NCBI GenBank assembly: GCA_024703915.1
Contig: CP087969.1
Location: 3,472,001 to 3,536,000 of the forward strand
Reading direction: 5' to 3'
DNA from: Massilia sp. H-1
Lineage (GTDB): Bacteria > Pseudomonadota > Gammaproteobacteria > Burkholderiales > Burkholderiaceae_D
Length of the DNA: 64,000 bases
Below the pieces are notes generated by a model. That model had not been told where the DNA came from and did not search any database. It saw only the letters and a list, made by a program, of their open reading frames with translations. This document shows positions 1 to 64,000 of this stretch, piece after piece; position 1 is the first letter of the stretch; each line of letters opens with the position of its first letter. Both the position numbers and the translations under genes were made by a program.

Positions 1-1061
1 GATGAGATCCACGCGTTCACCCAAGATCTCATCGAGGAGTGTTCTGGCCATCGCGCGAAAGCCATGCGCGGTCATGACCTCCTTGGCGTAGCCCATGCTG
101 CGCAATGCGGCGTTGATCGTGTTCTCGCTCATGCAGCGGTCGTCTGACCGAATGCTCGGGAAAACGTATGTTGCGTGGCCGGTCATCGGTTCCAGCGTCT
201 GCAAGATCTGCACTGCCTGCCGTGCGAGCGGCACCAGATGATCGTTTTTCATTTTCATCTTGGCGCCCGGTATGCGCCATTCGGCCGCCACAAGGTCGAT
301 CTCGCGCCATTCTGCGGCCCGCAGTTCGCCAGGGCGCACGAACAGCAGGGCCGACAGCTTCAGCGCCGCTGCGGCGTATGGATGGCCCGTATAGCCGTAA
401 ATTGAGCGCATCAATGCGGCGGCCCCCTTGGGCGTCGTGATGGCCGCGTAATTGGTTTTCTTAGGCGTGCTCAACGCGCCCTTGAGGTCCGCCGTGATGT
501 CGCGTTCGACGATGCTTAAGCAGCAACGGCATAACGAAACACCTGGCCGCACACCTGGCGCACGCGATGGGCCGATTCGACGGCGCCGCGCGCTTCCATG
601 CGCTGGACCGCCAGGAGGACGTCACGCGGGCGCAGCGACGATATCGGCAGCGGCCCCAAGTAGGGGAAGATATCCTTCGTGAGCCAGCCTGTGACCTTCT
701 CTTGCGTACTTGGGGCGCGCTCCGCAGCGGTCTTGGCCAACCATGCGCGCGCCACCAATTCAAGCGTCTGGGCGGCGGCCTCGCCCTGCCGCAATTTGTC
801 CTGGCGTTTCTGCAATCCGGGGTCGATCCCATCGGCCAGCAATACCCGTGCGTTGGCGCGCTGCTGGCGCGCCTTGGCCAGGCTCGTTTGCGGATAAACG
901 CCCAGGGCGAGTGTCTTGCGTTTGCCGAGATAGCGGTAATCTAGGCGCCAGTATTTCCCGGCAGGCTTGACGAGCAGGTACATGCCTTCGCCGTCGCTGT
1001 ACTTTTCACCTGATGGATTGAATGGTTTGAGATTTCTGACGAACGTGTCGGTGAGTGCCAT
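1..1061 (-). CDS. Tyrosine-type integrase, P4/CP4-57 family (3' end outside window)
   Basis: Site-specific recombinase of the tRNA-targeting P4 type. The N-terminal DUF4102 arm-binding domain (about residues 1-90, starting MALTDTFVRNLKPFNPSGEK) is followed by a core-binding domain and the catalytic domain. Box I arginine lies in RPGELR and the H-x-x-R box in HGFRAMAR. The tyrosine nucleophile would lie beyond the left edge. The frame breaks once, at 514-521, where GCTTAAGC replaces what should be GCCGGC; correcting it gives a continuous ...VAAGIVERDITADLK... reading. The gene lies about 180 bp downstream of the 3' end of a tRNA-Leu on the same strand, the usual position for an island integrase, so the island extends to the left of the window. 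Probably functional apart from the apparent sequencing error. Confidence 0.9.
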
Positions 1062-1108
1062 GGCAACGCCTCCAGCTGACGGTACTTTTTATCGAGTCTA
1101 GCGGGAGA

Positions 1109-1132
1109 TACCGCCAAAAATACCGTCAAAGA
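1109..1132. repeat. Short direct repeat upstream of integrase
   Basis: Two adjacent near-identical copies of TACCGCCAAAAA / TACCGTCAAAGA lie between the integrase start and the tRNA. Such repeats upstream of P4-type integrases can be arm-type recombinase sites or promoter elements. That role is inference; only the repeat is seen. Confidence 0.4.
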
Positions 1133-1172
1133 TCAAAGCTGATACTGGATGTTACCGGACGTCCTCGGACAT

Positions 1173-1208
1173 AAAAAAACCCGCCGTCAGAGGAGATGGG
1201 CGGGTTTA
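1173..1208 (-). terminator. Rho-independent terminator of tRNA-Leu
   Basis: On the minus strand an AAACCCGCC / GGCGGGTTT stem with a 12-nt loop is followed by a run of seven T. It lies just downstream of the tRNA-Leu and ends its transcript before the integrase. Confidence 0.8.
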
Positions 1209-1239
1209 GTGATACCGACTGTCATTGTGCGCTGAAAAC

Positions 1240-1325: not shown

Positions 1326-1442
1326 GCACGACAGCCTTCATGCACAAGGTCCGCATTATAAAGTAACGCGGCGGAAATTGAAATCCTCGATTTTGGGGGG
1401 GCGTTCAGCCGCCTGCCGCCACGTCCGAATGCATGGCGCCCG

Positions 1443-3173
1443 TTACGGCTGTTTCTGGTACAGGCGGAAGCGCTCGTCGCGGTCGGACTGGCGCTTCTAG
1501 CCTTCCCATACCAGCAGCCACTGGCCGCTGTCATGCGCCAGCATGGTTTCCTTGTGGTCCTTGATGCGCACGCTGTCCTGCACCAGGCGCAGGCTGCAAT
1601 GCTGGCCCGGACGCGAGAACGGCAGGGCGCCGTAGTAGGCGAACGAGGCGCGCTGGGCCAGGCCCACGCTGCTCTCGATGCAGCCCGAGCCCATCGCGCA
1701 GGCTGGCTGCCAGCTGGCGTGCCACGTTGGCGTAGCTCTTGCTGTAGTTGATGTCTTGCAGGAACAGGGTGGTGAGCATCACCCACAGCAGGATCAGGCC
1801 GCCGGACGAGAGCACCACGGCCCGCCACAGGACCGAGGGCTGGCGCGAAATGCGCCACTGGACCAGGAACACCCAGTGAGGCGGTGGCGCTGGCGGCGAC
1901 CAGGAAGGGCAGCCAGGAAAATTCGGGCACGAAGCCGGGCAACAGCTTGAGCAGGTTGCGTGCTTAGGCTGCGCGGGCCAGCCGGTCAGCTTGGCGATAT
2001 AGAACAGCCACAGCAGGCCAGCGAGCATGGTCAGCACCATCACCGAGAACCAGTCGATGGCGTTGATCGCGCCGCGCTTCATGGTCGGCAAGCCGAAGGC
2101 GGCCATGATGGCCAGCGGCGGCAGCAGCTTGAGCAGGTCGCCGTTTTCCGGTGCCGGGTCGCAAATGATGAGCACGACGAGCGCGCCGACCACGAACAGC
2201 GGCAGCACGATGTGCAGCAGGTGGTGCTGGCGGCGCCAGGCGTAGATGGCCCAGGCGGCGAACGGCCAGGCTTAAGCCAGAAGAACCAGATGCCGGTGCG
2301 CAGGAAGGTGCGGGCCGAGGTCCAGGCTTAAGCAAGCCGAGCTGATTGAGGTTCCAGGCCAGCCAGCCGAGGACCGGGTCGCTGCCCTGCGGCAGCGTCA
2401 GCGCGCAGGCGCCGGCCCAGGCCAGGGGCAGCAGCGCGGCGGCGGCGGCCGCCAGCGCCAGGTGGGACAGGGTGCGCGCCAGCGGCAGCTTGAGGAAGCG
2501 CGTGCACAGCAGCAGCGCCAGCGTCAGCGCTGCGGGCGTGAGCCAGCCGCGCGCCAGCGTCATCGCGCCCAGCGCCAGGCCGACCAGGGCGGCATTGCGC
2601 AGCGAGGCGTGCTCGACATAGCGCACGGCGCGGTACAGGAAATACGCGAGCAGGGAGCCGTGCAGGGTGACGGCCAGGGTTTCATGACTGAACAGCAGCA
2701 AGCCCAGGCAGCCGAGGTACATCAGCACGGCGGTGTCGGCCAGGGTGCGGCCATAGTCGTCCGGTTCGGGCTGGCCGCCGAAGGCCAGGCGCAGCGGCTG
2801 CGCTTCCGGGCGCCAGCCCAGGTGGAAGGCGGTGTACCAGACCGACAGCGTGCCGAGCATGAAGATGCCGATGTTCGACAGGCGCGCCGCCATGGCGCCG
2901 CCCGTCAGCGCGCCGAACAGCTTGATGCAGATCGCGCCCAGCCAGTAGGCGAGCGGGCCGTCGTCAGGATAGGGCAGGCTTAGCCAGGTTGGGGGCCAGC
3001 CAGTCGGCCAGGCCGCCCTGGGCCATGGTCCACATGACGCCGAAGCCGGCCGCGTCTTCCTTCCACAGCTCGCGCCCGATCAGGCCGGGCAGGATGTACA
3101 GCAGGCCCAGAGCGATCAAGGCCCAGCGGGGCAGGGCAAGGGTGGCGGCGGCGGCGAGGCGGACTGGCTTCAT
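1443..3173 (-). CDS. GT39/ArnT-like membrane glycosyltransferase (frameshifted)
   Basis: Predicted inner-membrane protein of about 575 residues resembling dolichyl-phosphate-mannose/aminoarabinose transferases, which move a sugar from a lipid-phosphate carrier onto an acceptor on the periplasmic face. The N-terminus ([20 protein letters not shown]) is a membrane helix followed by a loop with the acidic ELWKEDAAG segment typical of the first periplasmic loop of these enzymes. Many Leu/Ala-rich helices follow ([32 protein letters not shown]). The frame breaks several times, at about 2978, 2328, 2272, 1969 and 1497, mostly at GCTTAAGC-like scars. After correction the tail reads [20 protein letters not shown] and stops at 1443. 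Acceptor and donor cannot be deduced. A bidirectional terminator separates it from rpmE2. Confidence 0.75.
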
Positions 3174-3217
3174 CGATAGGAATAGTGGTGCAAATCAGGT
3201 AGGTCGTAGTATCAACG

Positions 3218-3244: not shown

Positions 3245-3263
3245 AGTTCTGCGCGGCAAAAAC

Positions 3264-6184: not shown

Positions 6185-9100
6185 TTACGCATCGCTGGCA
6201 AAGGTGGTGTTTTGCATAATATGTTCGGTCACCTTCTCGAGCAGGGGCCAGAGCGTGGCCAGGATGGTGCGCGCCTGCGCCCGCTCCTCGGCGGGACTGG
6301 CTTGCGGCAGGGTTTCGAGGCGTTCGCACAGCTCGGCCATGCCGAGCGCGCCGACCGTGCGCGCGGCCGACTTGATGCGGTGGCCCAGTTCGCGCACGCG
6401 CTCGATATTGCCGGTCGCCATGGCGTTCTCCATCTCGTCAAGTTCTAGCCTGGGTGGTCTGCAAGAACTTGAAGGCGAACTTGCGCACCTTGTGCTGGTC
6501 AAAACTGAGCAGCTTGGCGAGGATGGCCAGGTCGATCACGTCCGGGTTGCTTAAGCCAATACGGTGCGCGCAGGCAGCGCCAGCAGCGGGGGGGGCGTGG
6601 CGGGCCGGTCCGGGCAGGCGCGGCGGCAGCCAGCGCGCCACGGTCTTGAACAGCAGCAGCACGCTGAATCGGCTTGGTAATAAAGTCGTCCATGCCCGCC
6701 TGCATGGCGCGCTCGCGGTCGGCGCTGGTGGCGGTGGCCGTCATGGCCAGCACGCGCAAGCCTTGCAGGCGGGCGTCCAGGCGGATCAGGCGCGTCGCTT
6801 GCAGCCCGTCCATGACCGGCATCTGCACGTCCATCAGCACGCAATCGAAGCGCGCCTTGGCCAGCAGGTCGATCGCCTCGAGCCCGTTGTGCGCCACGCA
6901 CACCACGCAGCCGCTTCCTCCAGCATCTCGAGCGCAATTTGCTGATTGAAGGCATTGTCCTCGACCAGCAGGATGCGCGCCCCGGCCAGGGCGGCGTCGG
7001 GCGCGCTGGCCGCGTGCGCGGGCGGCGCGTCCGGCATGGCCGCCAGCTTGCCCACGCGCGCGGTAAACCAGAACGTGCTGCCGCAGCCGGGCGCGCTCTC
7101 GACCCCCACCGCGCCGCCCATCAGCTCGGCCAGCTGGCTGCAGATCGCCAGGCCCAGCCCGGTGCCGCCGAATTCGCGCGTGGTGGAGGTGTCGGCCTGC
7201 TGGAAGGACTGGAACAGGCGGGCCGCCTCCTCGTCCGACAGGCCGATGCCGGTGTCGCTGACCTCGAAGCGCAGCAGGCATTCCGCCTCCGAATCGAGCT
7301 GCATCATCACGCGCACCGTGACCGAGCCTTCGGCGCTGAACTTGATCGCATTGTTGGTGTAATTGATCAGGATCTGGCCGATGCGCAGCGGGTCGCCCAT
7401 CAGCGCGCAGGGGCAGGCCGGGCGCCACCTCGAACACCAGCGCCAGCTCCTTGCTTAAGCCGCCTTGGGCGCGACCACGGTGGTCACGGTCTCGATCACA
7501 TGGTCTAGCGTGAACGGCACGTTTTCCATTTCCAGCATGCTTAAGCCTCGATCTTGGAAAAATCGAGGATGTCGTCGATGATGCCCAGCAGGTGCTCATG
7601 CGGCAGAAGCGGATTTTTTCGATGTAGTCGCCTGGCGCGCATCGAGATCGGTCTTGAGCGCCAGGTAAGCCATCCCGATCACCCCGTTCATGGGGGTACG
7701 GATCTCGTGGCTCATATTGGCCAGGAACTGGCCCTTGGCCTGGCTCGCCTCCTCGGCCACCTGCTTGGCCTGGTCGAGCTGGCAGGTGCGCTGGGCCACG
7801 CGCTCCTCGAGGTGCTCGTTCAGTTCGCGCAGCTTGCGCTCGGCCGCCACGTTCTCGCTGATGTCGACCATCATCGCGATCAGATAGGCCTACTTCTAGC
7901 CCTGCTCGTCGAAGACCGGCTTGCGGAAGGTGCGCAGCGACTGCGGGACAGCCGGCCGGGCCGTGCTCGAGCGTCTCGATCTGTTCGACCATCACGCCGC
8001 CCTCGAAGACGGCCGTGTCGGGGCCCGCGAGCTAGGCCCTACCGACAAGCCGAACTGCACCTGGCAGGCGCTGTTCATCAGCGTCACCAGGCCATCCGGA
8101 TCCTTGATGTACAGCCCGATCGGCATCATCTGGATCACCTCGTGCAGGCGGGTCGCCATCTCCTTGAGCGCCTCGCTGGCGCGCTGGCGCTCGCCGATGT
8201 CGCGCAGCGAGACGATGGTCAGCCGCTGGCCTAGGCCAGCTGCATCGGCGTCAGGTTCACCTCGGCCGGGAAGCTCTCGCCGTTGGCGCGCGTGGCGGCC
8301 ACCACGTGGTCCGGGCCGCCGCCGTCCTCGATGCCGGGCGCCAGGCGCTTGGCCTGCATCCCGGCCAGCTCGGCCAGTGGATAGCCGAAACTGGCCGCGC
8401 ACAGCGCATTGGCGTAGCGGATCCGTCCCTCGGGGCCGATCACCAGCATCGCCTCGGGCGAGGCTTCGAGCACGGCGCGCACGCGCGCCTCCTCGGCCTG
8501 TTTGCGGTCGCCGATATCGGCCACCGTGCCGGTCATGCGCAGCGGGCGGCCGGCGGCGTCGCGCGCGACCACGATCGCCCGGCCCAGCAGCCACTTCCAG
8601 CTGCCGTCCTTGCAGCGCAGGCGGAATTCGCAGGCCAGGGTGGCACGGTCGGCGTCCGGCGCCGGGCGCGAAAAGCGATTGAGTTCGGACTGGAAGCGCG
8701 GCAGGTCTTCCGGATGCACGTGCATCAGCCAGGCATTGAGGCGCAGATTGAATTCATCCGGCCCGTAGCCGAGCAGCTCCTTGTAGCGCGCCGACAGCGT
8801 CAGCTCGCCGCCCGGGCGCGACCACTGCCACATGCCTTCGCCCGAGCCCTCGAGCGCGAAGCCCCACAGGTTTTCGGCGCTGGTGAGCTGCTGCTGGGTG
8901 GCGCGCAGGGCGATGCGCTCGTCCTGCAGCAGCGCGCCCAGGCGCGCAAAGCGCCATGCCACGGCGGCCGCGGCCAGCAGCAGGAGCAGGGCCCCGGACA
9001 GGGTCACGTACAGCGAACTGAGATCGAGCCCGGGCGCCTGGTACAGGAAACCGTCGATCGAAAAGCCTATTAAGCAGCATGCCGAGCGACGTGTAGGCGG

Positions 9101-10993: not shown

Positions 10994-12066
10994 ATGAAAG
11001 CAGAGATGAGCACAGCAAACTACAGCAGCGACGACGAGCGCTGGGCCGCGGTAGGGCGGCGCGACAAGGACGCCGACGGCGTGTTTTGGTATTCGGTCAG
11101 CAGCACCGGCGTGTACTGCCTACCCTCGTGCGGGGCGCGTCCCGCGCTGCGCAAGCACGTCGCCTTCCACGTCACGCGCGAAGCGGCCGAAGCGGCTAAG
11201 CTACCGGCCCTGCCAGCGCTGCAAGCCGGACCAGCCGCCGCTGGCCGAGCGGCACGCCCTGGTGGTAGCGCGCGCCTGTCGCCTGATCGACGCCAGCGAG
11301 GGCGAACCGAACCTCGACCAGCTGGCCGCAGCGTGCGGCATGAGCCGCTTCCATTTTCACCGCATCTTCAAGACGCACACCGGCATCACCCCGAAAGCGT
11401 ATGCGGCCGCGCAGCGCGCCAGGCGGCTGACGCGCGATCTGGGCGGCTCGGCCACCGTGACCGACGCCATTTACGCGGCTAAGCTTCAACTCGAGCGGGC
11501 GGTTTTACGCCCAGGCGCCGCAGCGGCTCGGCATGACGCCGAAGGCGTGGCGCGCGGGCGGCGTGGGCGAAGCGATCCGGTTCGCGGTCGGCGCCTGCTC
11601 GCTGGGCGCGATCCTGGTGGCGGCGACCGGCAAGGGCATCTGCGCGATCCTGATGGGGGACGACCCGGACCAGCTGGCGCGCGATCTGCAGGACCGCTTC
11701 CCGGCGGCCGAGCTGGTGGGGGCAGACGCCGCCTTCGAAGCCACGGTGGCCAAAGTAGTGGGGCTGGTCGAAGCGCCGGGGTGGGGGGCTTGATCTGCCG
11801 CTCGACGTGCGCGGCACCGCCTTCCAGCAGCGGGTGTGGGAAGCGCTGCGCCAGATCCCGAGTGGCGAGACGATCAGCTACGCCGGTCTGGCCGAGCGGA
11901 TCGGCGTGCTTAGACGAGGCGCGCGCCCATCATCCAAGCCTGCGCGGCCAACCCGGTTGCGGTCGCCATCCCCTGCCACCGGGTAGTGCGCACGGACGGC
12001 AGCCTGTCCGGCTACCGCTGGGGCGTCGAGCGCAAGCGCGCCCTGCTTGAGCGTGAAAAACCCTAA
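10994..12066 (+). CDS. ada: Bifunctional DNA repair regulator/methyltransferase Ada
   Basis: Repairs methyl phosphotriesters and O6-methylguanine by suicide transfer and activates the adaptive response. About 357 residues. The N-terminal zinc/methyl-acceptor domain has [19 protein letters not shown] and, after correction at 11195-11201, [12 protein letters not shown]. An AraC-type HTH follows ([20 protein letters not shown]). The C-terminal MGMT domain has [20 protein letters not shown] and the active site [17 protein letters not shown]. Frame breaks at 11195, 11479, 11785 and 11910 all lie in conserved positions and read through when repaired. It is divergent from hutC. Confidence 0.95.
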
Positions 12067-14807: not shown

Positions 14808-16534
<1,727 letters not shown>

Positions 16535-16535: not shown

Positions 16536-18085
16536 ATGACGACCTCGAACCAAGGCTGGACCCTGAACCCCGGCAAAATGACGCTGGACGACCTGCGCGC
16601 CGTCTGGGCCCTGCGCTTACCAAACTGACCCTGGCCGCTTCCGCCTACCCGGTCATCAAAGCATCGGCCGCGGCAGTCGAAGCGATCGTCGCCAAGGGCG
16701 ACGCCGCCTACGGCATCAACACCGGTTTCGGCATCCTGGCCAAGACCCGCATCCCCGACGAGAAGCTCGAGGAACTGCAGCGCAACCTGATCCTGTCGCA
16801 CTCGGTCGGTACGGGCGAGCTGCTGTCGGACGCCGTCGTGCGCCTGATCGTGCTGATGAAAATCGGCAGCCTGGCGCGCGGCTTCTCGGGCGTGCGTCCT
16901 TTGATCATCGATACCCTGATCGCGCTGTACAACGCGGGCGTCATGCCTGCCATTCCGGCCAAGGGTTCGGTCGGCGCGTCGGGCGACCTGGCGCCGCTGG
17001 CGCACATGACGCTGGCGATGCTGGGCGTGGGCCAGGTCCGCGTCGGCGGCCAGCTGGTCGAGGCGCACATCGCGCTCAAGAACGCGGGCATCGAGCCGGT
17101 CGTGCTGGCGGCCAAGGAAGGCCTGGCGCTGATCAACGGCACCCAGGTGTCGACCGCGCTGGCCCTGCATGGCCTGTTCATGACCGAACGCCTGGCGGAA
17201 GCGGCGATGGTGGCTTAGCTCCCTGTCGCTGGACGCGGCCAAGGGCAGCGATGCGCCGTTCGACGCGCGGTGCACGAAGTGCGCGGCCAGCCGGGCCAGA
17301 TCGCCGCGGCGTCCATCTATCGCCAGCTGGTGGCCGACAGCGCGATCCGCGCTTCGCACCTGGTCGGCGACGAGCGCGTGCAGGACCCGTACAGCCTGCG
17401 CTGCCAGCCGCAAGTCATGGGCGCGATCGTCGACCTGATCGCCAATGTCTCGCGCACGCTGCTGATCGAAGCCAATGCCGTTACCGACAATCCGCTGATC
17501 TTCCCGGCCACCGGCGAGATCATCTCGGGCGGTAACTTCCACGCCGAGCCGGTCGCTTTCGCGGCCGATACGCTGGCGCTGGCGATCGCCGAAATCGGCG
17601 GCCTGTCCGAGCGCCGCATCGCGCTGCTGATCGATGCGACCCTGTCCGGCCTGCCGCCTTTCCTGGTGCGCGATCCGGGCGTCAATTCGGGCTTCATGAT
17701 CGCCCACGTCACCGCCGCCGCGCTGGCGTCGGAAAACAAGTCGCTGGCCCATCCGGCCAGCGTCGACAGCCTGCCAACTTCGGCCAACCAGGAAGACCAC
17801 GTCAGCATGGCGACCTTCGGTGCGCGGCGTCTGGACGATATGGCGCAAAATACCGCTGTCATCGTCGGCATCGAGCTGCTGGCCGCTGCCCAGGGCATCG
17901 ATTTCCATCGTCCGCTCAAGTCGTCGCCCCACCTGGAGCACGTGCATGCGCAGCTGCGCCAGAAGGTGCCGTTCTTCGATGCCGACCGTTTCTTTGCTCC
18001 GGACATCGAAGCGGCCAAGCAGATGGTCGTCGGCGGTGAGCTGAGCGCGTCCTGCAAGAGCCTGTTCGCGTCGCTGTACGCTTAA
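16536..18085 (+). CDS. hutH: Histidine ammonia-lyase
   Basis: First enzyme of the pathway: L-histidine to urocanate and ammonia. About 515 residues. The self-forming MIO cofactor triad Ala-Ser-Gly is in [19 protein letters not shown]. Other signatures are YGINTGFG (catalytic Tyr loop), [14 protein letters not shown] and DNPLIFP. The frame is broken near 16615, at 17213-17219 (MVAGSLSLD expected) and near 17268 (DARVHEVRGQ expected). It starts one base after the hutU stop, so translation is probably coupled, and it is followed within 20 bp by hutG. Confidence 0.96.
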
Positions 18086-18892: not shown

Positions 18893-20264
18893 CCTCCCTG
18901 TTCGCGCGCCATGCGCTGCTGCCGGAAGGCTGGCGCGACAATGTCCGCATCGAGTGGTGCGCGGCTTAAGCACCCTGACCGCCGTCACGCCCGACAGCGC
19001 GCACCGCACCAACGAGCAGCGGGTCGAGCTGGTCATGCCGGGCATGGTCAATCTGCATTCGCATGCCTTCCAGCGCGCCCTCGGCGGCCTGACTGAAATC
19101 GCGGGCGACAGCCCGGACAGTTTCTGGACCTGGCGCGATCTGATGTACCGCTTCGCACGCAGCATCACGCTAAGCCCACATCGAAGCCATCGCGGCGCAG
19201 CTGTTCTCGGAATGTCTGCGCCACGGCTACACCTCGCTGTGCGAATTCCATTATGTGCAGCGCGACGCCGACGGCGGCATGTACAACCGTCCGGCCGAAA
19301 CGGCCGAACGCGTCATCGCGGCCGCGCGCCAGAGCAGGGATCGGCATCACCATGCTGCCGGTCTTGTACAGCTACAGCTCGCTTCGGCGAGCAGCCGCTC
19401 AAGCCGGAGCAGCAGCGCTTCCGCACCAGTGCGGCCGATGTGCTGCGCATTATCGACGCGCTCGAACCATTGCGCGGCGCGCAGGTGGAAGTGGGCGTGG
19501 CGCCGCATTCGCTGCGCGCGGCGTCGGCCGATCAGATTCGCGAGGTGCTGGCGGTGTTGCCGCCCGATCGCCCGGTCCACATTCACATCGCCGAGCAGCA
19601 GGCCGAGGTCGCGCAGTGCCTGGCGGCCACCGGCATGCGCCCGGTGCAGTATCTGATGGAGCAGTTCAAGCTCGATGCGCGCTGGTGCCTGGTGCACGCA
19701 ACGCACCTCGAGCCGTTCGAGACCGAGGCGCTGGCCGCCTCCGGCGCCATTGCTTAGCCTGTGTCCGACCACCGAAGCGAATCTGGGCGACGGCCTGTTC
19801 CCGCTGGAGCCCTACCTGGCCGCGAACGGCCGCTTCGGCATCGGCAGCGACAGCCACATTTCGCAGTCGGCGGTCGAAGAGCTGCGCTGGCTCGAATACG
19901 GCCAGCGCCTGCAGCATCAGCGCCGCAACGTGGCGGCGTCGGGCGCGCAGCGCCGGGTCGGCGACTTCCTGTGGCAGGCTGCACTGGTAGGCGGCGCGCT
20001 CGCTTCCGGCCGCCCGGTGGGCGCGCTGGCCCCCGGCAAGCGGGCCGACCTGCTGGTGCTCGACAGCGCCCACCCCAACCTGGCTTAAGCATCGCGCCCG
20101 CCGACGTCCTCGGCACCTTTGTCTTCTGCGGCAATGACAACCTGGTGCGCGACGTGATGGTGGGCGGCCGTTGGGTTGTGCAAAATCAAGAGCATGTGGC
20201 GCAGGCCGAGATTACACAACGATATGTGCAGACCATTGCCGAATTGCGTACACTGAGGGCATGA
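18889..20264 (+). CDS. hutF: Formimidoylglutamate deiminase
   Basis: Converts N-formimino-L-glutamate to N-formyl-L-glutamate and ammonia, feeding hutG. About 455 residues of the amidohydrolase superfamily. Metal-binding site in VMPGMVNLHSHAFQRALGG. Further motifs are YTSLCEFHYVQRDADGGMY, VHIHIAEQQAEVAQC, WCLVHATHLE, LCPTTEANLGDG and FGIGSDSHISQSAVEELRWL. Start is a GTG overlapping the hutG stop (GTGA). Four breaks at 18964, 19169, 19752 and 20083 each lie where GCCGGC (Ala-Gly or Pro-Ala) is expected. Its stop overlaps the hutD start (ATGA). Confidence 0.94.
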
Positions 20265-24288: not shown

Positions 24289-25228
24289 GGGACCTCGGGG
24301 TAGGGTGGTGAGGCAAACGGCCTCTTTGGGTGTGGGGGCGGGCGTGCGCACGGCCCAGGCCACGCTGGCCAGGCACAGGAACATGCCAAGAAATTCCAGC
24401 GGACCGGGACGGTAGTGTTCGAGCTGGATCGACAGCAGCAGCGAAATGACAGGCGTGACAACGCCGATGTACACCGCCTTTTGCGAACCGATCCGGTTGA
24501 TCAGGGTGAAGTAGGCGCTGAACGCGATCACCGAACCAAAGATGGCCAGATAGGCCAGGCCCATCCAGTACTGCGGCTTGGTCGGCAGAATGAATTGCTG
24601 GCCAGTGAGCAGGGCCCACAGCGCCACCATGATGGTGCCCCACAACATCGACCAGGCCATCGTCAGGAACAGGTTGGACGAATGTTCGCGTACCTTGGTG
24701 ACGACGATGTTGCTTAAGCCGAACTGGAGATGGTGGCGGTCAGCGCCAGTGCCAGCCCCAGCAGGAAATGCCCCGCGCCGCCGCCCACGATGTCTTTCCA
24801 TGCATCGGCGATCGAGTGGAAGAACAGCATCGTCACTCCGGTCACGGCCACCATGCTGGCGGGCCCAGGTGCGCCAGGTGATGGCGGTGCCGAAGGCGAT
24901 CCGGCTGCAGATCGGGTTCCAGAACACCATCAGGGCAAACAGCACGGCCACCAGGGCCGACACCAGGTATTGCTCGGAAGTGTAGGTGCAGACGTAGGAG
25001 AGCGCGAACGAGAAAAAGCCCTGCAGGATCATCCAGCGCTGGGCTTGGCCATGGCAGGCGCAGACGCTCGCCGCGCGCCAGGCACATCAGGAACAGGGTG
25101 GCCGAAGCCAGGCCGAAGCGGTAGACCACCGACACCGAAGGCGCTACTTCGCCCAGTTGCACGGTAATGGCCCAGAAGGTGGAGCCCCAGATCAGGGAGG
25201 CAATGGCGAAGAGGAGGGGAGAGGACAT
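24285..25228 (-). CDS. EamA/DMT family transporter
   Basis: Inner-membrane metabolite exporter of the drug/metabolite transporter superfamily, about 310 residues with ten predicted helices. N-terminal EamA repeat: SSPLLFAIASLIWGSTFWAI. Second repeat: YWMGLAYLAIFGSVIAFSAY with FTLINRIGSQKAVYIGVVTP. Breaks at about 25040, 24860 and 24715 (TTAAG scar). In the given text the last frame has no stop before the GNAT gene; a single-base shift in the linker would place a TGA overlapping the GNAT ATG, the usual arrangement, which is why the end is set at 24285. Confidence 0.85.
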
Positions 25229-43138: not shown

Positions 43139-43808
43139 TTACGCCAGTACTTTTTCAGCCAGGCCGAGATGTCGTCGACTTCTTCCTGGCACAGCGAGTG
43201 CTGCATATAGTAGTCGTGCCATTCGACCTGGTAGCCGAGGGCCTTGAGCAGCTCGCGCGACTGTTCGGCGCGGGCGATCGGAATCACGCCGTCGTGCTGG
43301 CCGTGGACCATGAAGACGGGCGTGCGCAGGCTCGCTTCGCTGCGTTCGTTCGAAATTTTGTCGGCCAGCGGCACGTAGCCGGACAGGCACATCAGGCTTA
43401 GCCAGCGGCTCCGGATGGCGCAAGCCGGTCTGCAGCGTCATCGCGCAGCCCTGCGAGAAGCTTAGCCAGGATGATGCGCGAGGCGGGAATGCCGCGCGCC
43501 TTTTCCTGGGCGATCAGGGCTTCGACCTGCAACTGCGACGCGCGCAGGCCAGGTTCGTCTTCCATCCGTCCCAGGTCGTTCATCTTGATGTCGTACCAGG
43601 CGCGCATGACGTAGCCGCCATTGATCGTCACCGGCATCGTGTTCGCATGCGGGAAGATGAAACGGATCATCGCAGGCTTGGCCAGGTCGAGTTCGCGCAC
43701 GAAGGGGACGAAGTCGTTGCCGTCGGCGCCCAGGCCGTGCATCCAGATGACGGAAACGGTCGGTTCGGGGGCGGTGTCGACGACGATGTGTTCGAGCAGT
43801 TGGGTCAT
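43139..43808 (-). CDS. Carboxylesterase/phospholipase-type alpha/beta hydrolase
   Basis: About 223 residues of the EstB-type esterase family. Oxyanion region VSVIWMHGLGADGNDFVPFV, then FIFPHANTMPVTINGGYVMR and AWYDI. The nucleophile elbow after repair is GFSQG (frames broken at 43460-43466). CLSGYVPLADKI precedes the catalytic Asp in VFMVHGQHDGVIPIARAEQS, and the catalytic His is in YYMQHSLCQEEVDDISAWL. Both breaks (43397-43403 and 43460-43466) are GCCGGC scars. Cytoplasmic; substrate is probably short-chain esters. Confidence 0.92.
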
Positions 43809-43812: not shown

Positions 43813-44414
43813 TTATGGTGTTGGCTGCGGGCGCAGCGCCGACTTGGGCCGGAACGCCTTGCACACGGCGGGATTGGTGTCGATGTAGGGGCCGCCGATC
43901 AGGTCCACGCAGTAAGGCACGGCCGCGAAAATGCCGCCGACCAGCTGCTTGCCGTCGGCGTCGCGCAAGCCTTCCAGCGTTTCCTTGATCGCTTTCGGCT
44001 GGCCGGGCAGGTTCATGATCAGGGCCGCGTGGTCCTTGATCTCGCGGATCACGGCGGTCTGGCGCGACAGGATCGCGGTCGGCACGAACTGCAGGCTGAT
44101 CTGGCGCATCTGCTCGCCGAAGCCCGGCATCTCCTTGGTGCCGACGGCCAGCGTCGCTTCCGGCGTGACGTCGCGCCGCGAAGGCCCGGTGCCGCCCGTG
44201 GTCAGCACCAGGTGGCAGCGCTGCTGGTCCACCAGGTCGATCAGGACTTGTTCGATGTGCCCCCGTTCGTCGGGAATGAGGCGCTGTTCGATGCGGTAAG
44301 GCGTGGTGATGGCGCTTACCAGCCAGTCGGCCAGGGCCTAAGCAGGCCCTTGTCTTCGTAGATGCCGCCGCTGGCGCGGTCGGACACCGACACCAGGCCG
44401 AGCACCAGTTCCAC
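43813..44414 (-). CDS. mog: Molybdopterin adenylyltransferase MogA-like
   Basis: Activates molybdopterin by adenylylation for molybdate insertion. About 200 residues. N-terminal LVLGLVSVSDRASGGIYEDK, MPT-binding HLVLTTGGTGPSRRDVTPEA, and GFGEQMRQISLQFVPTAILS plus RQTAVIREIKDHAALIMNLP and GQPKAIKETL. C-terminal AAVPYCVDLIGGPYIDTNPA. Start taken at GTG 44414, since the overlapping ATG is out of frame with the conserved start. One break near 44335 (CTAAGC scar). Directly downstream of darP. Confidence 0.9.
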
Positions 44415-45115: not shown

Positions 45116-46476
45116 ATGACCGACTCCGTCTTCATCCATACCCAGGATCAGCTCAAACAGCTGGCGCGCGACGTGCTTTCCTTCGCCAAAGAGGCCGCGG
45201 GCACCGATGCCGCCGTCGAGATTTCCGAGGGCAGCGGCCTGTCGGTCTCGGTCCGGCGCGGCAAGATCGAGACGATCGAGCAAAACAAGGACAAGGGCAT
45301 GGGCGTGACGGTCTATATCGGCCAGAAGCGCGGCAATGCCAGCACCTCCGATTTTTCCACGGCCGCCCTGCGTGCCACGGTCGACGCGGCCTACAACATC
45401 GCGCGCTTCACGGCCGAAGACGACTGCGCTTAGCCTGGCCGACGCCGACATGCTCGAAATGGCCCCGCGCGACCTGCGCCTGTGCTACCCGTGGACGGTC
45501 AGCACCGAACAGGCGGTGCTGCTGGCCCAGCGCGCCGAAAACGCGGCCTTCGAGGTCGATCCGCGCATCACCAATAGCGAGGGCGCCAGCGTCCACGCCC
45601 AGCAATCGCACTTCGTGGCGGCCAACACGCGCGGCTTCATCGGCGGCTATCCGTTCTCGCGCCACACCCTGTCGGTGGCGCCGATCGCTCTAAGAGGGCG
45701 CCAAGATGCAGCGCGACGACTGGTACACCTCGGTGCGCAACGCCAAGGACATGGCCGCGCCCGAAAAGTCGGCCGCTACGCCGCCGAGCGCGCCCTGGCG
45801 CGCCTGAACGCGCGCAAGCTCGATACCCGCACCTGCCCGGTCCTGTTCGAGGCGCCGCTGGCGGCCTGGCCTGCTGGGCTCCTTCGTGCAGGCGGTGTCG
45901 GGCGGTTCGCTGTACCGCAAGTCCAGTTTCCTGCTCGATTCGCTCGGCAAGGACATATTCCAGAAGCATATCCAGATCCTGGAAGACCCGCACCAGGTGG
46001 GCGGGGTCGGCTCGGCCCCGTTCGACGAAGAAGGCGTGCGCACCGCGCGCCGCCTGGTGGTGGAAAACGGCGTGGTCAAGGGTTACTTCCTGTCGTCCTA
46101 TTCGGCGCGCAAGCTGGGCATGAAAACCACGGGCAACGCGGGCGGCTCGCACAACCTGACCATCAGCTCGTCCAACACCAGCAAGGCGGACGACTTCGCT
46201 TAAGCATGATCCGCAAGATGGGGCGCGGCCTGCTGGTCACCGAACTGATGGGGCAGGGCACCAATTACGTGACGGGCGACTATTCGCGCGGCGCGTCCGG
46301 CTTCTGGGTCGAGAACGGCGTCATTCAATACCCGGTCGAGGAAATCACGATCGTTCTAAGCAACATGAAAGACATGTTCCGCCAGATCGTTGCGGTCGGC
46401 AACGACGTCCTTACACGCGGCAACAAGCAGACCGGCTCGATCCTGATCGAGAACATGGTGGTGGCTAAGCAGCTGA
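45116..46476 (+). CDS. pmbA: Metalloprotease PmbA/TldE
   Basis: TldE subunit of the TldD/TldE peptidase that matures modified peptides and clears antitoxins. About 450 residues. Segments: AAVEISEGSGLSVSVRRGKI, ETIEQNKDKGMGVTVYIGQK, NSEGASVHAQQSHFVAANTR, GGSLYRKSSFLLDSLGKDIF, PHQVGGVGSAPFDEEGVRTA, GYFLSSYSARKLGMKTTGNA, and near the end GLLVTELMGQGTNYVTGDYS and RGASGFWVENGVIQYPVEEI. Breaks at 45430, 45690, 45870, 46198, 46357 and 46464. The last converts an Ala-Gly-Ser-stop ending into a false 13-residue extension to 46514, so the true end is put at 46476. Confidence 0.95.
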
Positions 46477-46580: not shown

Positions 46581-47677
46581 ATGGAACGTCGTTCCTTCAT
46601 TGGCAAGGCGGCGCTGGGCGCATCGGTAGGCCTGATCGCCGCGCCCGCGCTGGCGCAGTCGCAGCCGACCATCAACTGGCGCCTGGCCAGCAGCTTCCCC
46701 AAAACGCTGGACACGATCTATGGTGCTTCCGACACGCTGACCAAGCGTGTCTCGCAACTGACTGGCGGCAAATTCAATATCCGCACCTTCGCCATGCGCA
46801 TGAAATCATGCCGGGCCTGCAAGTGATGGACGCGGTCCAGGCCTAAGCACGGTCGAAATGGGCCACAGCGCCTCCTACTATTACTTCGGCAAGGATTCCA
46901 CCTTCGCCTTCGATTGCGCGGTGCCCTTCGGCCTGACGTCGCGCCAGCACACGGCCTGGTACGAGCAGGGCGGCGGGCGCGAACTGATGCGCGATTTCTT
47001 CAAGGGCTACGGCATCGTCAACTTCCTGGGCGGCAATTCCGGCACCCAGATGGGTGGCTGGTTCCGCAAGGAAATCAAGTCAGTGGCCGACCTCAAGGGC
47101 ACCAAGATGCGCGTGGGCAGGCTTCTGCTTAAGCAAGGTCATGGAGCGCCTGGGCCTGGTGCCGCAGCAGCTGGTAAGCAGCGGCGACATCTACCCGGCC
47201 CTGGAAAAGGCACGATCGATGCGGCCGAATGGGTCGGCCCTTACGACGATGAAAAGCTCGGCCTGTACAAGGTGGCGCCGTTCTACTACGCCCCGGGCTG
47301 GTGGGAGGCGGGCGCGAGTTTCTCCTTCTACGTCGGCATCAAGGAATGGGAAAAGCTGCCCAAGGAATACCAGGCGGCGCTGGAAGTGGCCACCTATGAA
47401 GCGCACATCGTGATGCAGTCCGAGTACGATGCCAAGAACCCGGCCGCTGGCTGGCCTGCTCAAAAACGGCGTCAAGCTGCGCACCTTCTCCAAGGACATC
47501 ATGAACGGCTGCTACGCCGCCGCCCAGGAAGTGATGAGCGAGGAAGCGGCCAAGAACGCCAAGTTCAAGAAGGTGTATGAGCCATGGTCGCGCTTCCGCC
47601 AGGATCAGAACATGTGGGCATCGGTGGCCGAGGCCAGCATGCAGCAGTATCTGATCAACGCAGGACGCGCCAAGTAA
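46581..47677 (+). CDS. Tat-exported TRAP substrate-binding protein, TakP-like (copy 1)
   Basis: Periplasmic DctP-type binding protein of about 365 residues related to the alpha-keto-acid binder TakP. Twin-arginine signal MERRSFIGKAALGASVGLIA followed by AAPALAQ. Mature segments: [100 protein letters not shown] and EAHIVMQSEYDAKNP. Breaks at 46797, 46841-46848 (GCCTAAGC for Ala-Gly), 47130, 47176, 47208 and 47450. No DctQ or DctM membrane gene adjoins it. Close paralogue of 52640-53726. Confidence 0.92.
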
Positions 47678-55863: not shown

Positions 55864-56844
55864 ATGTACGCACAATTGGTAGAAACCGGCCTCAAAAAGT
55901 CCAGACGGCCGAGGACATGGGCGCGGAGGAGCTGGCCTTCCAGACCCGCATCGACGCTTAAGCGTCAAGATCGAAGCGAAGGACTGGATGCCGGACGCCT
56001 ACCGCAAGACGCTGGTGCGCCAGATCTCGCAGCACGCGCATTCGGAAATCGTCGGTCAGCTGCCCGAAGGCAACTGGGTCACGCGCCGCCTACCCTGAAA
56101 CGCAAGTCCATCCTGCTGGCCAAGATCCAGGACGAAGCGGGCCACGGCCTGTACTTGTACAGCGCGGCCGAAACGCTGGGCGTCTCGCGCGACGAACTGC
56201 TGGCCGCCCTGCATTCGGGCAAAGCCAAGTATTCGAGCATCTTCAATTACCCGACCCTGTCGTGGGCCGACATGGGCGCCGTGGGCTGGCTGGTGGACGG
56301 CTCGGCCATCATCAACCAGATCCCGCTGTGCCGCTGCTCCTACGGTCCGTACGCGCGCCATGATCCGCGTGTGCAAGGAAGAATCCTTCCATGCGCGCCA
56401 GGGTTACGACATCATGATGAGCCTGGCCAAGGGCACGCCCGAACAGAAGGCCATGGCCCAGGATGCGCTCAACCGCTGGTGGTGGCCGTCGCTGATGATG
56501 TTCGGCCCGTCGGACGCCGAATCGGTCAACAGCGCGCAGTCGGCCAAGTGGCGCATCAAGCTGTTCTCGAACGACGAACTGCGCCAGCGCATGGTCGACC
56601 AGACCGTGCCCCAGGCCGAATACCTGGGCCTGACCATTCCCGATCCCGACCTCAAGTTCAACGAAGCCACCGGCCACTACGAATTCGGCGAGATCGACTG
56701 GAGCGAATTCAATAACGTCTTGAAGGGCAATGGCCCGTGCAACCGCGAACGCCTCGCGACCCGGGTCAAGGCCTGGGACGACGGCGCCTGGTTCCACGAT
56801 GCCCTGGTCGCCTACGCCGACAAAAGCCGCGCGCAGCCGCGTAA
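55864..56844 (+). CDS. paaA: 1,2-phenylacetyl-CoA epoxidase subunit PaaA
   Basis: Catalytic diiron subunit of the PaaABCE monooxygenase that epoxidises the ring of phenylacetyl-CoA. About 325 residues. Diiron ligands: Glu in [12 protein letters not shown] region and [11 protein letters not shown], ExxH in [20 protein letters not shown], and [20 protein letters not shown] for the second helix pair. [18 protein letters not shown] follows. Breaks near 55900, 55960, 56090, 56355. The last frame lacks a stop before paaB; one extra base change gives TAA at 56844, which fits the expected length. RBS GGAG 9 bp before ATG. Confidence 0.95.
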
Positions 56845-58446: not shown

Positions 58447-59524
58447 ATGAGCAAATTCTATCCACTGAGCGTCGCCCGCGTGCACCGCGAAACGCGCGAC
58501 ACGATCGTTGTCACCTTCGACGTCCCGGCCGCGCTGCAAGCGCAGTTCGCCTACCAGCAGGGCCAGCACCTGACCCTGCGCGCCCGGATCGGCGACGAAG
58601 ACGTGCGCCGTTCGTACTCGATCTGTTCGGCCGTGCAGGACGGCCTGCTGCGGGTGGCCATCAAGCGCACCCAGGGAGGCCTGTTCTCGAGCTGGGCCAA
58701 CGAGCATCTGCAGCCGGGCATGACGCTCGAAGTGATGCCGCCGATGGGCCACTTCAATGTGCCGCTGGCGCCGGAGAACGCGCGCCACTACCTGGCCTTC
58801 GCGGCTAAGCAGCGGCATCACGCCTATCCTGTCGATCATCAAGACCACGCTGCTGCACGAACCGAACAGCCGCTTCACTCTGTTCTACGGCAACCGCGCC
58901 TCGTCCTCGGTGATCTTCAAGGACGAGCTGTCCGACCTCAAGGATACCTACACCGAGCGCCTGAACCTGGCCTACGTGATGAGCCGCGAGCAGCAGGACA
59001 TCGAACTGTTCAACGGCCGCATCACGCGCGACAAGTGCGAGCAATTCCTCAAGTACTGGATCCGCATCCAGGACGTGGACGTGGCCTTCATTTGCGGCCC
59101 CGAAGACATGATGCACGCGGTGTCGGGCGCGCTGCAGGACGCGGGCATGCCCAAGCAGAATATCAAGGTCGAGCTGTTCGCGGCCAGCATTCCCAAGCAC
59201 GAGCACAAGCCGCGCCCGCAGGTGGCGGGCGCGCGCCACGAAACCGAAGTCACGGTCATCATGGACGGCAACCACACCAGCTTCACGATGGACAAGGACA
59301 AGGAATCGATCCTCGACGCCGGCCTGCGGGCTGGCATCGACATGCGCTATTCCTGCAAAGGTGGGGTATGCTCGACCTGCCGCTGCAAGCTTGTCGACGG
59401 CAAGGTCGACATGGATGCGAACTACGCGCTGGAAGACTATGAAATCGCGCGCGGCTTCGTGCTGAGCTGCCAGAGTTTCCCCGTCACCGACAAGGTGATC
59501 GTCGATTTTGACCAGGCTGAATAA
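58447..59524 (+). CDS. paaE: 1,2-phenylacetyl-CoA epoxidase reductase PaaE
   Basis: Electron-transfer subunit, about 360 residues: FAD domain (RRSYSICSAVQDGLLRVAIK), NAD domain after a repaired AGSGITPILSIIKTTLLHEP, RFTLFYGNRASSSVIFKDEL and AFICGPEDMMHAVSGALQDA. A C-terminal plant-type [2Fe-2S] ferredoxin domain has DMRYSCKGGVCSTCRCKLVD and the last Cys in FVLSCQ. One break at 58804-58810 (GCTAAGC for GCCGGC); otherwise intact. Confidence 0.96.
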
Positions 59525-59535: not shown

Positions 59536-60341
59536 ATGATCCCAGAATACGAAAACATCAAGTTCCAGATCCAGAACGGCGTCATGACGCTGACCCTGAA
59601 CCGCCCCGATAAACTGAACAGCTTCACGGTCGCCATGCACCGCGACGTGCGCGACGCGCTGAACCTGGTGCAGGCCGACAAATCGGTACGCGTGCTGTTG
59701 CTGACCGGCGCCGGGCGCGGCTTCTGCAGCTTAGCCAGGATCTGTCGGACCGCGCGGTCGAACCGGGCGCGCAGGGCGTCGACCTGGGCTACTCGGTCGA
59801 GACCTATTACGCGCCGCTGGTGCTGACGCTGCGTTCGCTGCCGATCCCCGTCATCTGCGCCGTCAACGGCGTGGCCATGCTGCATGCTTGGCGCCAACAT
59901 CGCGCTCGCCTGCGACATCGTCCTGGCTTAAGCAAATCGGCCAGCTTCGTCGAAGTGTTCTGCAAGCTCGGCCTGATCCCCGATACGGGCGGCACCTGGC
60001 ATCTGCCACGCCTGGTGGGCCACGCGCGCGCCATGGGCATGGCCATGCTGGGCGAGAAAATCAGCGCCGAGACGGCCGAACAGTGGGGCCTGATCTGGCG
60101 CTGCGTGTCCGACGAAGGCCTGATGGACGAAGCCACCACCATGGCGGCCCACCTGGCGATTGCGCCGACCAAGGGCCTGGCGTTCACCAAGCGCGCCATC
60201 GCCGCCAGCTACGCCAACACCCTGCCGGAGCAGCTCAAGCTCGAAGGCGAGATGATGCGCGAACTGGGCTACAGCCACGACTACCGCGAAGGCGTCGCCG
60301 CCTTCATCGCCAAGCGTCCGCCTCACTTCACCGGAGAATAA
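59536..60341 (+). CDS. paaG: Ring-1,2-epoxyphenylacetyl-CoA isomerase PaaG
   Basis: Crotonase-family isomerase converting the epoxide to the oxepin. About 263 residues. MTLTLNRPDKLNSFTVAMHR, oxyanion loop FCAGQDLSD (repaired at 59727), VICAVNGVAAGAG (broken at 59875), IVLAGKSASFVEVFCKLGLI, PDTGGTWHLPRLVGHARAMG and LAFTKRAIAASY. The catalytic Asp in the PDTGG loop fits PaaG rather than a hydratase with Glu. Three breaks at GCC-rich sites. Confidence 0.9.
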
Positions 60342-61903: not shown

Positions 61904-62322
61904 CCTTCAAGCGCTGGCCGAACTGGCTAAGCAAGACCATGTACGAACGCGACTCGGCCAGCCAGGCGCTGGGCATGCTGCTGGCCGAGATCCGTCCCGG
62001 CTTCGCGCGCATGACCATGCCGGTGCGCCAGGATATGCTCAATGGCCACCAGACCTGCCACGGCGGCTTCATCTTCATGCTGGCCGACAGCGCCTTCGCC
62101 TTCGCCTGCAATTCGCATAATCAGAATACGGTGGGCGCAGGCTGCACCATCGACTACCTCGCACCGGGACGCCTGGGCGACCTGTTGACCGCCGAAGCGG
62201 TGGAACAGGCCTTGTCCGGCAAGACCGGCGTCTACGACGTCAAGGTCACCAACCAGGAGGGCCGCACCGTGGCGCTCCTGCGCGGAAAATCACATCGCGT
62301 CAGCGGTCTGGTGGCCTCCTAG
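61896..62322 (+). CDS. paaI: Acyl-CoA thioesterase PaaI
   Basis: Hotdog-fold thioesterase that releases CoA from dead-end phenylacetyl-CoA derivatives. About 142 residues. RDSASQALGMLLAEIRPGFA, MLNGHQTCHGGFIFMLADSA (catalytic Asp region), AFACNSHNQNTVGAGCTIDY and GRTVALLRGKSHRVSG. Start ATG 61896 (DDLQALAELAGKTMYER after repairing GCTAAGC at 61926-61932), overlapping the paaH stop. Confidence 0.92.
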
Positions 62323-62335
62323 AAGGAGAAGCACG

Positions 62336-63654
62336 ATGGTCCAACGTATTCCCGCGCCCGGCGATCTCGAGCCGATCGAGACGGCCAGCCGCGACGAGCT
62401 GCAAGCCTTGCAGTTGCAGCGCATGAAATGGTCGCTCAAGCACGCGTACGACAACGTCCCGCACTACAAGGCCGCGTTCGACGCCGCTTTGGCGTGCATC
62501 CGGAAGACTTGCGCACGCTGGCCGATCTGGCCAAGTTCCCGTTCACCGACAAGAAGACCCTGCGCGACAACTATCCCTTCGGCCTGTTCGCGGTGCCGCA
62601 GAGAAAGTCGTGCGCGTGCACGCCTCGTCGGGCACCACCGGCAAGGCCACCGTGGTCGGCTACACCGAAGGCGACATCGACACCTGGTCCAATATGGTGG
62701 CCCGTTCGATCCGCGCAGTAGAGCAGGCCGTGCTTAAGGACATGGTCCACATCTCGTACAGCTACGGCTTGTTCACGGGCGGCTTGGGTGCGCACTACGG
62801 CGCCGAACGCCTGGGCTGCACCGTGATCCCGATGTCGGGCGGGCAGACCGAGAAGCAGGTGCAGCTGATCTGCGACTTCAAGCCCGAGATCATCATGGTC
62901 ACGCCCTCGTACATGCTCAACATCATTGAGGAATTCAAGCGCCAGGGCATGGATCCGGCCCAGTCCTCGCTCAAGGTCGGCATCTTCGGCGCCGAGCCGT
63001 GGACCGACGCCATGCGCCATGAGATCGAACAGCGCGCTAAGCATCGACGCGGTCGACATCTACGGCCTGTCCGAAGTGATGGGCCCGGGCGTGGCCAGCG
63101 AGTGCATCGAGAGCAAGGACGGCCCGGTGGTGTGGGAAGACCATTTCTACCCCGAGATCATCGACCCCGTCACGGGCGAAGTGCTGCCCGACGGCGAGGA
63201 GGGCGAACTGGTCTTCACGTCCCTGAGCAAGGAAGCGCTGCCGATCATCCGCTACCGCACGCGCGACCTGACGCGCCTGTTGCCGCCGACTTCGCGCGCG
63301 ATGCGCCGCATGGGCAAGATCAACGGCCGCTCGGACGACATGCTGATCATCCGCGGCGTGAATGTATTCCCGAGCCAGATCGAAGAACTGATCCTCAAGA
63401 TGCCCGCGCTGGCGCTGCACTACCAGCTGGTCGTCTCGCGCGAAGGCCACCTCGACACGCTGGCCGTGCGCGGCGAGCTGCGCGACCTGGCGCTGCCGCA
63501 AGACACGGTCGCCGCCCTGGCGCGCGAACTGGAACACAACATCAAGACCTTCGTGGGCGTGACCACCAAGGTGACGCTGGTGCCGCCCGAAGGCATCGAA
63601 CGCACGCTGACCGGCAAGGCCAAGCGCGTGATCGACCAGCGACCGAAACCCTGA
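62336..63654 (+). CDS. paaK: Phenylacetate-CoA ligase
   Basis: First step of the pathway: phenylacetate + ATP + CoA. About 438 residues. AMP-binding P-loop [100 protein letters not shown] and [21 protein letters not shown]-terminal Lys in [14 protein letters not shown]. Breaks at about 62490, 62600, 62720 and 63040. RBS AAGGAG upstream. Confidence 0.95.
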
Positions 63655-63670
63655 GAACACCGGAGAGACA

Positions 63671-64000
63671 ATGAACAAGATCAACGACGCCTTCATCTGC
63701 GACGCCATTCGCACCCCGTTCGGCCGCTACGGCGGCTCGCTGTCGGGCGTGCGCGCCGACGACCTGGCGGCGCTGCCGATCGCCGCCCTCATGGCGCGCA
63801 ATCCCGGCGTGGACTGGCGCGCGGTGGACGACCTGTATTACGGCTGCGCCAACCAGGCTTAGCTGAAGACAACCGCAACATCGGCCGCATGGCTGCGCTG
63901 CTGGCGGGCTTGCCGCAGGAAGTGCTTAAGCCAATACCATCAACCGCCTGTGCGGTTCGAGCCTGGATGCGGTCGGCATCGGCGCGCGCCATCAAGGCCG
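63671..64000 (+). CDS. paaJ: 3-oxoadipyl-CoA/beta-ketoadipyl-CoA thiolase (3' end outside window)
   Basis: Thiolase that cleaves 3-oxoadipyl-CoA to succinyl-CoA and acetyl-CoA. Only about the first 110 residues are present: MNKINDAFICDAIRTPFGRY, GGSLSGVRADDLAALPIAAL and DDLYYGCANQAGEDNRNIGR. The nucleophilic Cys lies in TINRLCGSSLDAVG, with neighbouring SSLDAVGIGAR. Breaks at 63857-63863 and 63924-63931 (GCTTAGC and GCTTAAGC for GCCGGC). Could equally be called pcaF. Preceded by GGAG and 16 bp after paaK. Confidence 0.92.

What the first reader, a model, noticed from the sequence alone, without database searches (positions are those of the whole stretch)
514..63931. Systematic corruption of GCCGGC into TTAAG/CTAAG/TTAG scars
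At dozens of sites where conserved proteins require GCCGGC, the text shows GCTTAAGC, GCTAAGC, GCTTAGC, GCCTAAGC or GCTTAGGC and the frame shifts. Clear cases: integrase 514-521, ada 11195, hutU 15891, hutH 17213, hutF 18964/19169/19752/20083, esterase 43397/43460, pmbA 46198/46464, paaE 58804, paaI 61926, thiolase 63857/63924. Some intact GCCGGC remain (15604, 36549, 52685, 59318), so the error is frequent but incomplete. The simplest explanation is a base modification at GCCGGC misread by long-read base calling, which implies an active GCCGGC-specific methyltransferase in the host. The modification itself is inference.
Basis: partly seen in the sequence, partly recalled or inferred. Interest (0 to 1): 0.75.

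Follow-up and report, generated by a model that had tools for sequence, protein, structure and literature searches.

The report
Methylated GCCGGC sites misread by sequencer
The odd TTAAG-like scars are almost certainly sequencing errors at GCCGGC sites that the bacterium probably marks with a NaeI-type restriction-modification system found elsewhere in its genome, so many of its genes look broken on paper but probably are not.

Summary
The window has 65 scars of the five named forms and 15 intact GCCGGC. GCTTAAGC occurs 27 times against 0.64 expected, and 1773 times genome-wide against at most 147 in 398 other genomes of the order. Where at least 85% of at least four relatives hold GCCGGC, the window keeps 1 of 36 sites and changes length at 29; other palindromes are kept at 194 of 278. 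No aligned relative carries a scar (0 of 62 aligned scars). Other scar forms exist too. About 0.42 Mb before the window, the genome's only PF00145 C5-methyltransferase lies beside a Vsr gene and a NaeI-like endonuclease. NaeI is above its cut-off in 1 of 399 genomes of the order: this one. Best explanation: m5C at GCCGGC, misread in a long-read, probably nanopore-only, assembly; chemistry and platform are inferred. Against: 79 other NaeI-bearing genomes lack the scars, M and R each have a frame break as printed, and most other indels called here lie away from GCCGGC. An artefact of a known kind; its insertion form is unusual.

The parts
514..521 (.). GCTTAAGC scar, first in window
   Evidence: no aligned relative
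2270..2277 (.). GCTTAAGC where 7 of 8 relatives have GCCGGC
2978..2984 (.). GCTTAGC where 8 of 8 relatives have GCCGGC
7598..7605 (.). other scar form (ATGCGGCA), 7 of 8 relatives GCCGGC
11195..11201 (.). GCTAAGC scar; 3 of 8 relatives GCCGGC
11478..11484 (.). GCTAAGC where 7 of 8 relatives have GCCGGC
15397..15405 (.). other scar form GCTTCAAGC, 19 of 19 relatives GCCGGC
15891..15898 (.). GCTTAGGC where 17 of 19 relatives have GCCGGC
16074..16083 (.). other scar form GCCGACAAGC, 19 of 19 relatives GCCGGC
17213..17219 (.). GCTTAGC scar; commonest relatives' form GCCGGT
18964..18971 (.). GCTTAAGC scar; commonest relatives' form lacks GCCGGC
19169..19175 (.). GCTAAGC scar; commonest relatives' forms GCCGGA and GCCCGA
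19752..19758 (.). GCTTAGC scar; several relatives GCCGGC
20083..20090 (.). GCTTAAGC scar; several relatives GCCGGC
24712..24719 (.). GCTTAAGC where 8 of 8 relatives have GCCGGC
28625..28631 (.). GCTTAGC where 6 of 6 relatives have GCCGGC
43396..43402 (.). GCTTAGC scar
43460..43466 (.). GCTTAGC scar
44336..44343 (.). GCCTAAGC where 6 of 7 relatives have GCCGGC
45428..45434 (.). GCTTAGC where 6 of 7 relatives have GCCGGC
46198..46205 (.). GCTTAAGC where 7 of 7 relatives have GCCGGC
46464..46470 (.). GCTAAGC scar
46794..46801 (.). other scar form, core of CATGCGCATG where 6 of 6 relatives have GCCGGC
46841..46848 (.). GCCTAAGC where 6 of 6 relatives have GCCGGC
55956..55963 (.). GCTTAAGC where 5 of 5 relatives have GCCGGC
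58804..58810 (.). GCTAAGC where 5 of 5 relatives have GCCGGC
59318..59323 (.). the one conserved GCCGGC kept intact (5 of 5 relatives)
59729..59735 (.). GCTTAGC where 5 of 5 relatives have GCCGGC
61926..61932 (.). GCTAAGC scar
63857..63863 (.). GCTTAGC scar
63924..63931 (.). GCTTAAGC scar, last in window

Best explanation
The scars are not in the living chromosome. The host carries a NaeI-type restriction-modification system: a C5-cytosine methyltransferase, a Vsr mismatch endonuclease and a NaeI-like endonuclease at genome positions about 3,045,900-3,048,500, outside the window. The methyltransferase puts m5C on both strands of GCCGGC. An uncorrected long-read assembly, most probably nanopore-only, then reads the modified palindrome wrongly. 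Because the site is a palindrome modified on both strands, reads of either strand give equivalent errors: GCTTAAGC is its own reverse complement, and GCTAAGC/GCTTAGC and GCCTAAGC/GCTTAGGC are reverse-complement pairs. Consensus of the two strands then cannot repair them. Shown: scars sit where relatives have GCCGGC, and the NaeI-type cassette is present. Inferred: m5C as the mark, activity of this methyltransferase on GCCGGC, the nanopore platform, and the consensus argument. Which C is methylated is unknown.
For: Conserved GCCGGC kept at 1 of 36 sites with length changed at 29 of 36, against 194 of 278 kept and 32 of 278 length-changed for other palindromes. Each of eight relatives, left out in turn, keeps 55-97%. 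GCTTAAGC: 1773 here (about 304 per Mb), at most 147 in 398 other genomes of the order and 13-41 in 16 same-genus genomes. 0 of 62 aligned scars is carried by a relative. Reported completeness is 48.22% although the genome is one 5.84-Mb contig, as many frame breaks would cause (inference). NaeI-like: PF09126 1.7e-46, PDB 1ev7/1iaw 5.6e-26; Vsr 1.7e-28; C5-MTase 2e-47. NaeI above cut-off in 1 of 399 genomes of the order. A homologue of this methyltransferase lies in the fetched flanks of 73 of 80 other NaeI loci, and of Vsr in 34 of 80. m5C at GCCGGC is a validated bacterial mark (Aeromonas hydrophila NEB724, PMC8565308, passages read). The only PF01555 (N6/N4-type) methyltransferase match has an orthologue in all 11 same-genus genomes searched, so it does not explain a pattern peculiar to this genome.
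Against: No reads, signal or platform metadata are available. None of 79 other NaeI-bearing genomes tested has a comparable GCTTAAGC density (39, 40; highest 160 in 5.7 Mb, about 28 per Mb), so NaeI does not leave scars by itself. How they were sequenced was not checked, though some record titles (spades, NODE, k141) suggest short-read assembly. As printed, the methyltransferase and the endonuclease each have one frame break away from any of the five scars or GCCGGC; if real, the system would be dead. Of 360 own-specific indel events called in the window (a noisy list in which one indel can appear more than once), 81 have GCCGGC in at least half of the relatives, 47 in some and 232 in none: the assembly has much other error or divergence. 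The passages I read on nanopore modification errors describe mainly substitutions (PMC10687267, PMC11610573), whereas these are mostly +1 to +4 insertions. In gonococcus, GCCGGC was called 5mC from nanopore reads at 32 of 33 pil sites, and the passages read mention no such scars (PMC12871193). Homopolymer shortening, the usual nanopore sign, is slight: 2 of 37 here against 2 of 456 in eight relatives.
Confidence: 0.88

Rival explanations
1. The GCCGGC mark is something other than m5C, for example N4-methylcytosine, a phosphorothioate or a bulkier base. The artefact is the same but the chemistry differs.
For: Length changes of -1 to +4, mostly +1 and +2, look stronger than the substitution errors in the passages read from two nanopore papers; 5mC at gonococcal GCCGGC was read by nanopore with no scars mentioned in the passages seen.
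Against: The NaeI-type cassette carries a C5-type methyltransferase. No DndC phosphorothioation gene was found in this genome. The only PF01555 enzyme has orthologues in all 11 same-genus genomes searched. Other modification families were not searched.
Confidence: 0.08
2. The base caller or polisher fails on plain GCCGGC in this run, with no modification.
For: The assembly has other errors or divergence too: loss of GC units in GCGCGC runs (9 of 60 conserved sites length-changed) and 232 of 360 called indel events without GCCGGC in relatives.
Against: The failure is close to complete at one 6-mer while similar GC-rich 6-mers (GCTGGC 38 of 42, CTGGCC 24 of 32) are kept. NaeI, which targets that 6-mer, is above cut-off only here among 399 genomes of the order.
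Confidence: 0.03
3. The scars are real mutations: a GCCGGC-targeted insertion or repair process in the living cell.
For: A Vsr nicking endonuclease sits in the cassette and could act at such sites.
Against: Frame-breaking inserts would hit a large share of genes at once, conserved ones included. No relative carries any aligned scar (0 of 62). Vsr is known (recalled) to start repair of T:G mismatches, not to insert TTAA.
Confidence: 0.01

Closest known systems
NaeI restriction-modification system (Type IIE endonuclease NaeI; site GCCGGC recalled)
   Same: Endonuclease piece matches NaeI by sequence (PDB 1ev7/1iaw, PF09126), beside a C5-MTase.
   Different: Vsr gene between M and R; 44% identity to NaeI over the aligned piece; M and R each frame-broken as printed. 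Specificity was not measured.
Modification-mediated nanopore errors (Listeria GCAGC/GCTGG, PMC10687267; Klebsiella RACG/CGTY, PMC11610573; passages read)
   Same: Systematic consensus errors at one motif, linked to a lineage's methyltransferase or a suspected mark.
   Different: There mainly substitutions; here mostly +1 to +4 insertions, with a palindromic main form, at nearly every conserved site.
m5C at GCCGGC in Aeromonas hydrophila NEB724 (PMC8565308, passages read) and gonococcus (PMC12871193, passages read)
   Same: Same motif; m5C validated in the first, called from nanopore reads in the second.
   Different: Those enzymes were not compared with this one; no scars are mentioned in the passages read.

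Membership tests
NaeI-type restriction-modification system | NaeI-family endonuclease | tested here: met
   PF09126 1.7e-46, PDB NaeI 5.6e-26
NaeI-type restriction-modification system | Adjacent C5-cytosine methyltransferase | tested here: met
   PF00145 2e-47 and 7.1e-11 in two frames; homologue in the flanks of 73 of 80 other NaeI loci
NaeI-type restriction-modification system | Both genes intact | tested here: inconclusive
   each shows one frame break as printed, in an error-rich assembly
NaeI-type restriction-modification system | Cleavage and methylation of GCCGGC | not testable with these tools
   inferred from family and from the scars
Modification-mediated long-read base-calling error | Near-complete failure at one motif, absent from relatives | tested here: met
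   1 of 36 kept against 194 of 278 for other palindromes; 0 of 62 aligned scars in relatives; other indels also exist
Modification-mediated long-read base-calling error | Errors vanish in amplified DNA or short reads | not testable with these tools
   no reads available
Dnd phosphorothioation | DndC gene in genome | tested here: not met
   no match to TIGR03183 in this genome

The most novel reading that the evidence does not exclude
The GCCGGC mark is not plain m5C, or sits in a context base callers have not learned, and gives a new error class: palindromic +2 insertion scars whose form is set by the flanking bases. Such scars would make the methyltransferase specificity readable from finished assemblies alone, without raw signal.
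Probability: 0.12. Interest if true: 0.55.

Novelty: new member of a known kind. Interest (0 to 1): 0.35.

Why it matters
A one-contig genome is held with 48% reported completeness, probably largely because one restriction-modification mark corrupts a great many sites. Gene censuses, pseudogene counts or phylogenies drawn from it would be unsafe. The case also shows that a consensus sequence alone can name the modified motif and lead to the gene cassette likely responsible.

Tried and rejected
Phosphorothioation was considered and not supported (no DndC). The PF01555 methyltransferase was considered and set aside (orthologues in 11 of 11 same-genus genomes searched). I looked for the same scar in other NaeI hosts: 0 of 79 at a comparable density (L110 was not held). 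Two of them (G432: 160 against a reversed-pattern control of 52; G433: 31 against 10) match this genome's ratio to control (1773 to 537); the fetched loci of those two genomes (L093, L094) are only 44-46% G+C, so I take the ratio as composition. Likewise in the order sample G198 (147 against 12 in 2.3 Mb) and G097 (114 against 29): 20 kb of each is 46% and 52% G+C with 6 and 8 intact GCCGGC and no GCTTAAGC; not followed further. Homopolymer shortening as proof of nanopore was weak (2 of 37). The form CATGCGCATG is seen at 41630 and 46794, but its counts (4 in 244 kb; 3 in 240 kb and 4 in 343 kb of relatives) show no enrichment. Literature searches listed no paper whose title or shown abstract start describes this scar; searches list only the best of more papers (20 of 19,438; 12 of 61; 10 of 30). 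I read passages of five papers and none in full.

Full report
Observation. The window (G000:C1:3472001-3536000 of a single 5.84-Mb contig with reported completeness 48.22%) holds 65 scars of the five named forms and 15 GCCGGC. GCTTAAGC occurs 27 times against a shuffle mean of 0.64, GCTAAGC plus GCTTAGC 27 against 6.2, GCCGGC 15 against 88.8. Genome-wide GCTTAAGC occurs 1773 times; it occurs 13-41 times in 16 same-genus genomes, and the largest count among 398 other genomes of the order is 147.

Relation to GCCGGC. I aligned the window to eight same-genus relatives over long stretches, plus shorter loci from others. At 62 of 65 scars at least one relative aligned; at 45 of 62 at least one has GCCGGC, at 30 of 62 at least half do, and at 0 of 62 does any carry the scar. 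In the reverse direction, 36 sites hold GCCGGC in at least 85% of at least four relatives. The window keeps 1, changes length at 29, and differs without length change at 6. Some of these differences may be true divergence. Controls: other palindromic 6-mers are kept at 194 of 278 conserved sites with 32 length changes; GCTGGC is kept at 38 of 42. Each of eight relatives, left out in turn, keeps 55-97% of conserved GCCGGC, against 1 of 36 here.

Other error. A mechanical list of own-specific indels in the window has 360 entries, some of them repeats of one event: 81 with GCCGGC in at least half of the relatives, 47 in some, 232 in none (its printout was cut, the tally is whole). So GCCGGC is the strongest single motif, not the only source of length differences. 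GCGCGC is length-changed at 9 of 60 conserved sites.

Scar grammar. The main form is its own reverse complement and the others come as reverse-complement pairs in similar numbers: GCTAAGC and GCTTAGC 14 and 13 in the window and 38 and 43 in 244 kb; GCCTAAGC and GCTTAGGC 7 and 4, and 22 and 26. This fits a symmetric mark on a palindrome, read from both strands. Flanks matter: with both strands pooled, A follows the site in 40% of 225 TTAA-type scars against 20% at relatives' 700 GCCGGC, and G in 12% against 40%. Several of the other scar forms sit where relatives have GCCGGCG. Why is unexplained.

Cause. The genome has one PF00145 C5-methyltransferase gene, matched in two pieces, and one PF01555 match. 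The C5 gene lies at about 3,045,900-3,047,000 on the minus strand. On the plus strand next to it are a Vsr mismatch endonuclease and then an endonuclease whose open piece matches NaeI (PF09126 1.7e-46; PDB 1ev7/1iaw 5.6e-26). That NaeI cuts GCCGGC is established knowledge (recalled); the review passage I read calls NaeI Type IIE but prints its site as GCC|CCG, which I take for a misprint (PMC4081073). NaeI is above cut-off in 1 of 399 genomes of the order, this one; one other genome has a weak match below cut-off. Of 145 NaeI relatives found elsewhere, 80 were kept; a homologue of this methyltransferase lies in the fetched flanks of 73 of 80 and of Vsr in 34 of 80. m5C at GCCGGC is a validated bacterial mark (PMC8565308, passages read). 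The PF01555 enzyme has an orthologue in all 11 same-genus genomes searched, and no DndC was found. Other modification families were not searched.

Reading. A NaeI-type system marks GCCGGC with m5C, and an uncorrected long-read assembly misreads the marked sites. Shown: the loss of GCCGGC, the scars in its place, their absence from relatives, and the cassette. Inferred: activity of this enzyme, the chemistry, the platform. Both M and R carry a frame break as printed, away from any GCCGGC or named scar. Since the assembly also shows other errors, and a dead methyltransferase would not leave a GCCGGC-specific trace, I take those breaks as residual errors, but this is not shown.

Against. None of 79 other NaeI-bearing genomes has a comparable scar density; their sequencing methods were not checked. 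Gonococcal GCCGGC was called 5mC from nanopore reads at 32 of 33 pil sites, and the passages read mention no scars (PMC12871193). Homopolymer shortening is slight (2 of 37 against 2 of 456). The passages I read on nanopore modification errors describe mainly substitutions, so insertion scars are unusual and may point to something specific about this mark or base caller.

Verdict. It is an artefact, not a genomic feature, with what looks like an ordinary restriction-modification system behind it.

Noticed in passing
L077 9940-12516 (G000:C1:3045939-3048515): NaeI-type cassette: C5 methyltransferase (minus), Vsr and NaeI-like gene (plus), 50% G+C against 60% in the 5 kb to its left; the right flank is mixed (55%, then 51%). 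Possibly horizontal gain.
   Followed up: partly
window 4943, 56358, 56983: CGCGCGC runs lose a GC unit relative to relatives; GCGCGC is length-changed at 9 of 60 conserved sites. A second, weaker assembly error.
   Followed up: partly
window 41630 and 46794: CATGCGCATG where relatives have CGCCGGCG or close to it, a palindromic +2 form; not enriched in 244 kb.
   Followed up: partly
L056 1426-2118 (G000:C1:2924356-2925048): A PF01555 DNA methyltransferase beside reading frames that look like hisD and hisC (recalled, not searched), 90-95% identical in all 11 same-genus genomes searched: probably a genus-wide methyltransferase.
   Followed up: partly
G198 (order sample, 2.3 Mb): GCTTAAGC 147 times against 12 for the reversed pattern; 20 kb of it is 46% G+C with 6 intact GCCGGC and no GCTTAAGC, so probably composition.
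   Followed up: partly
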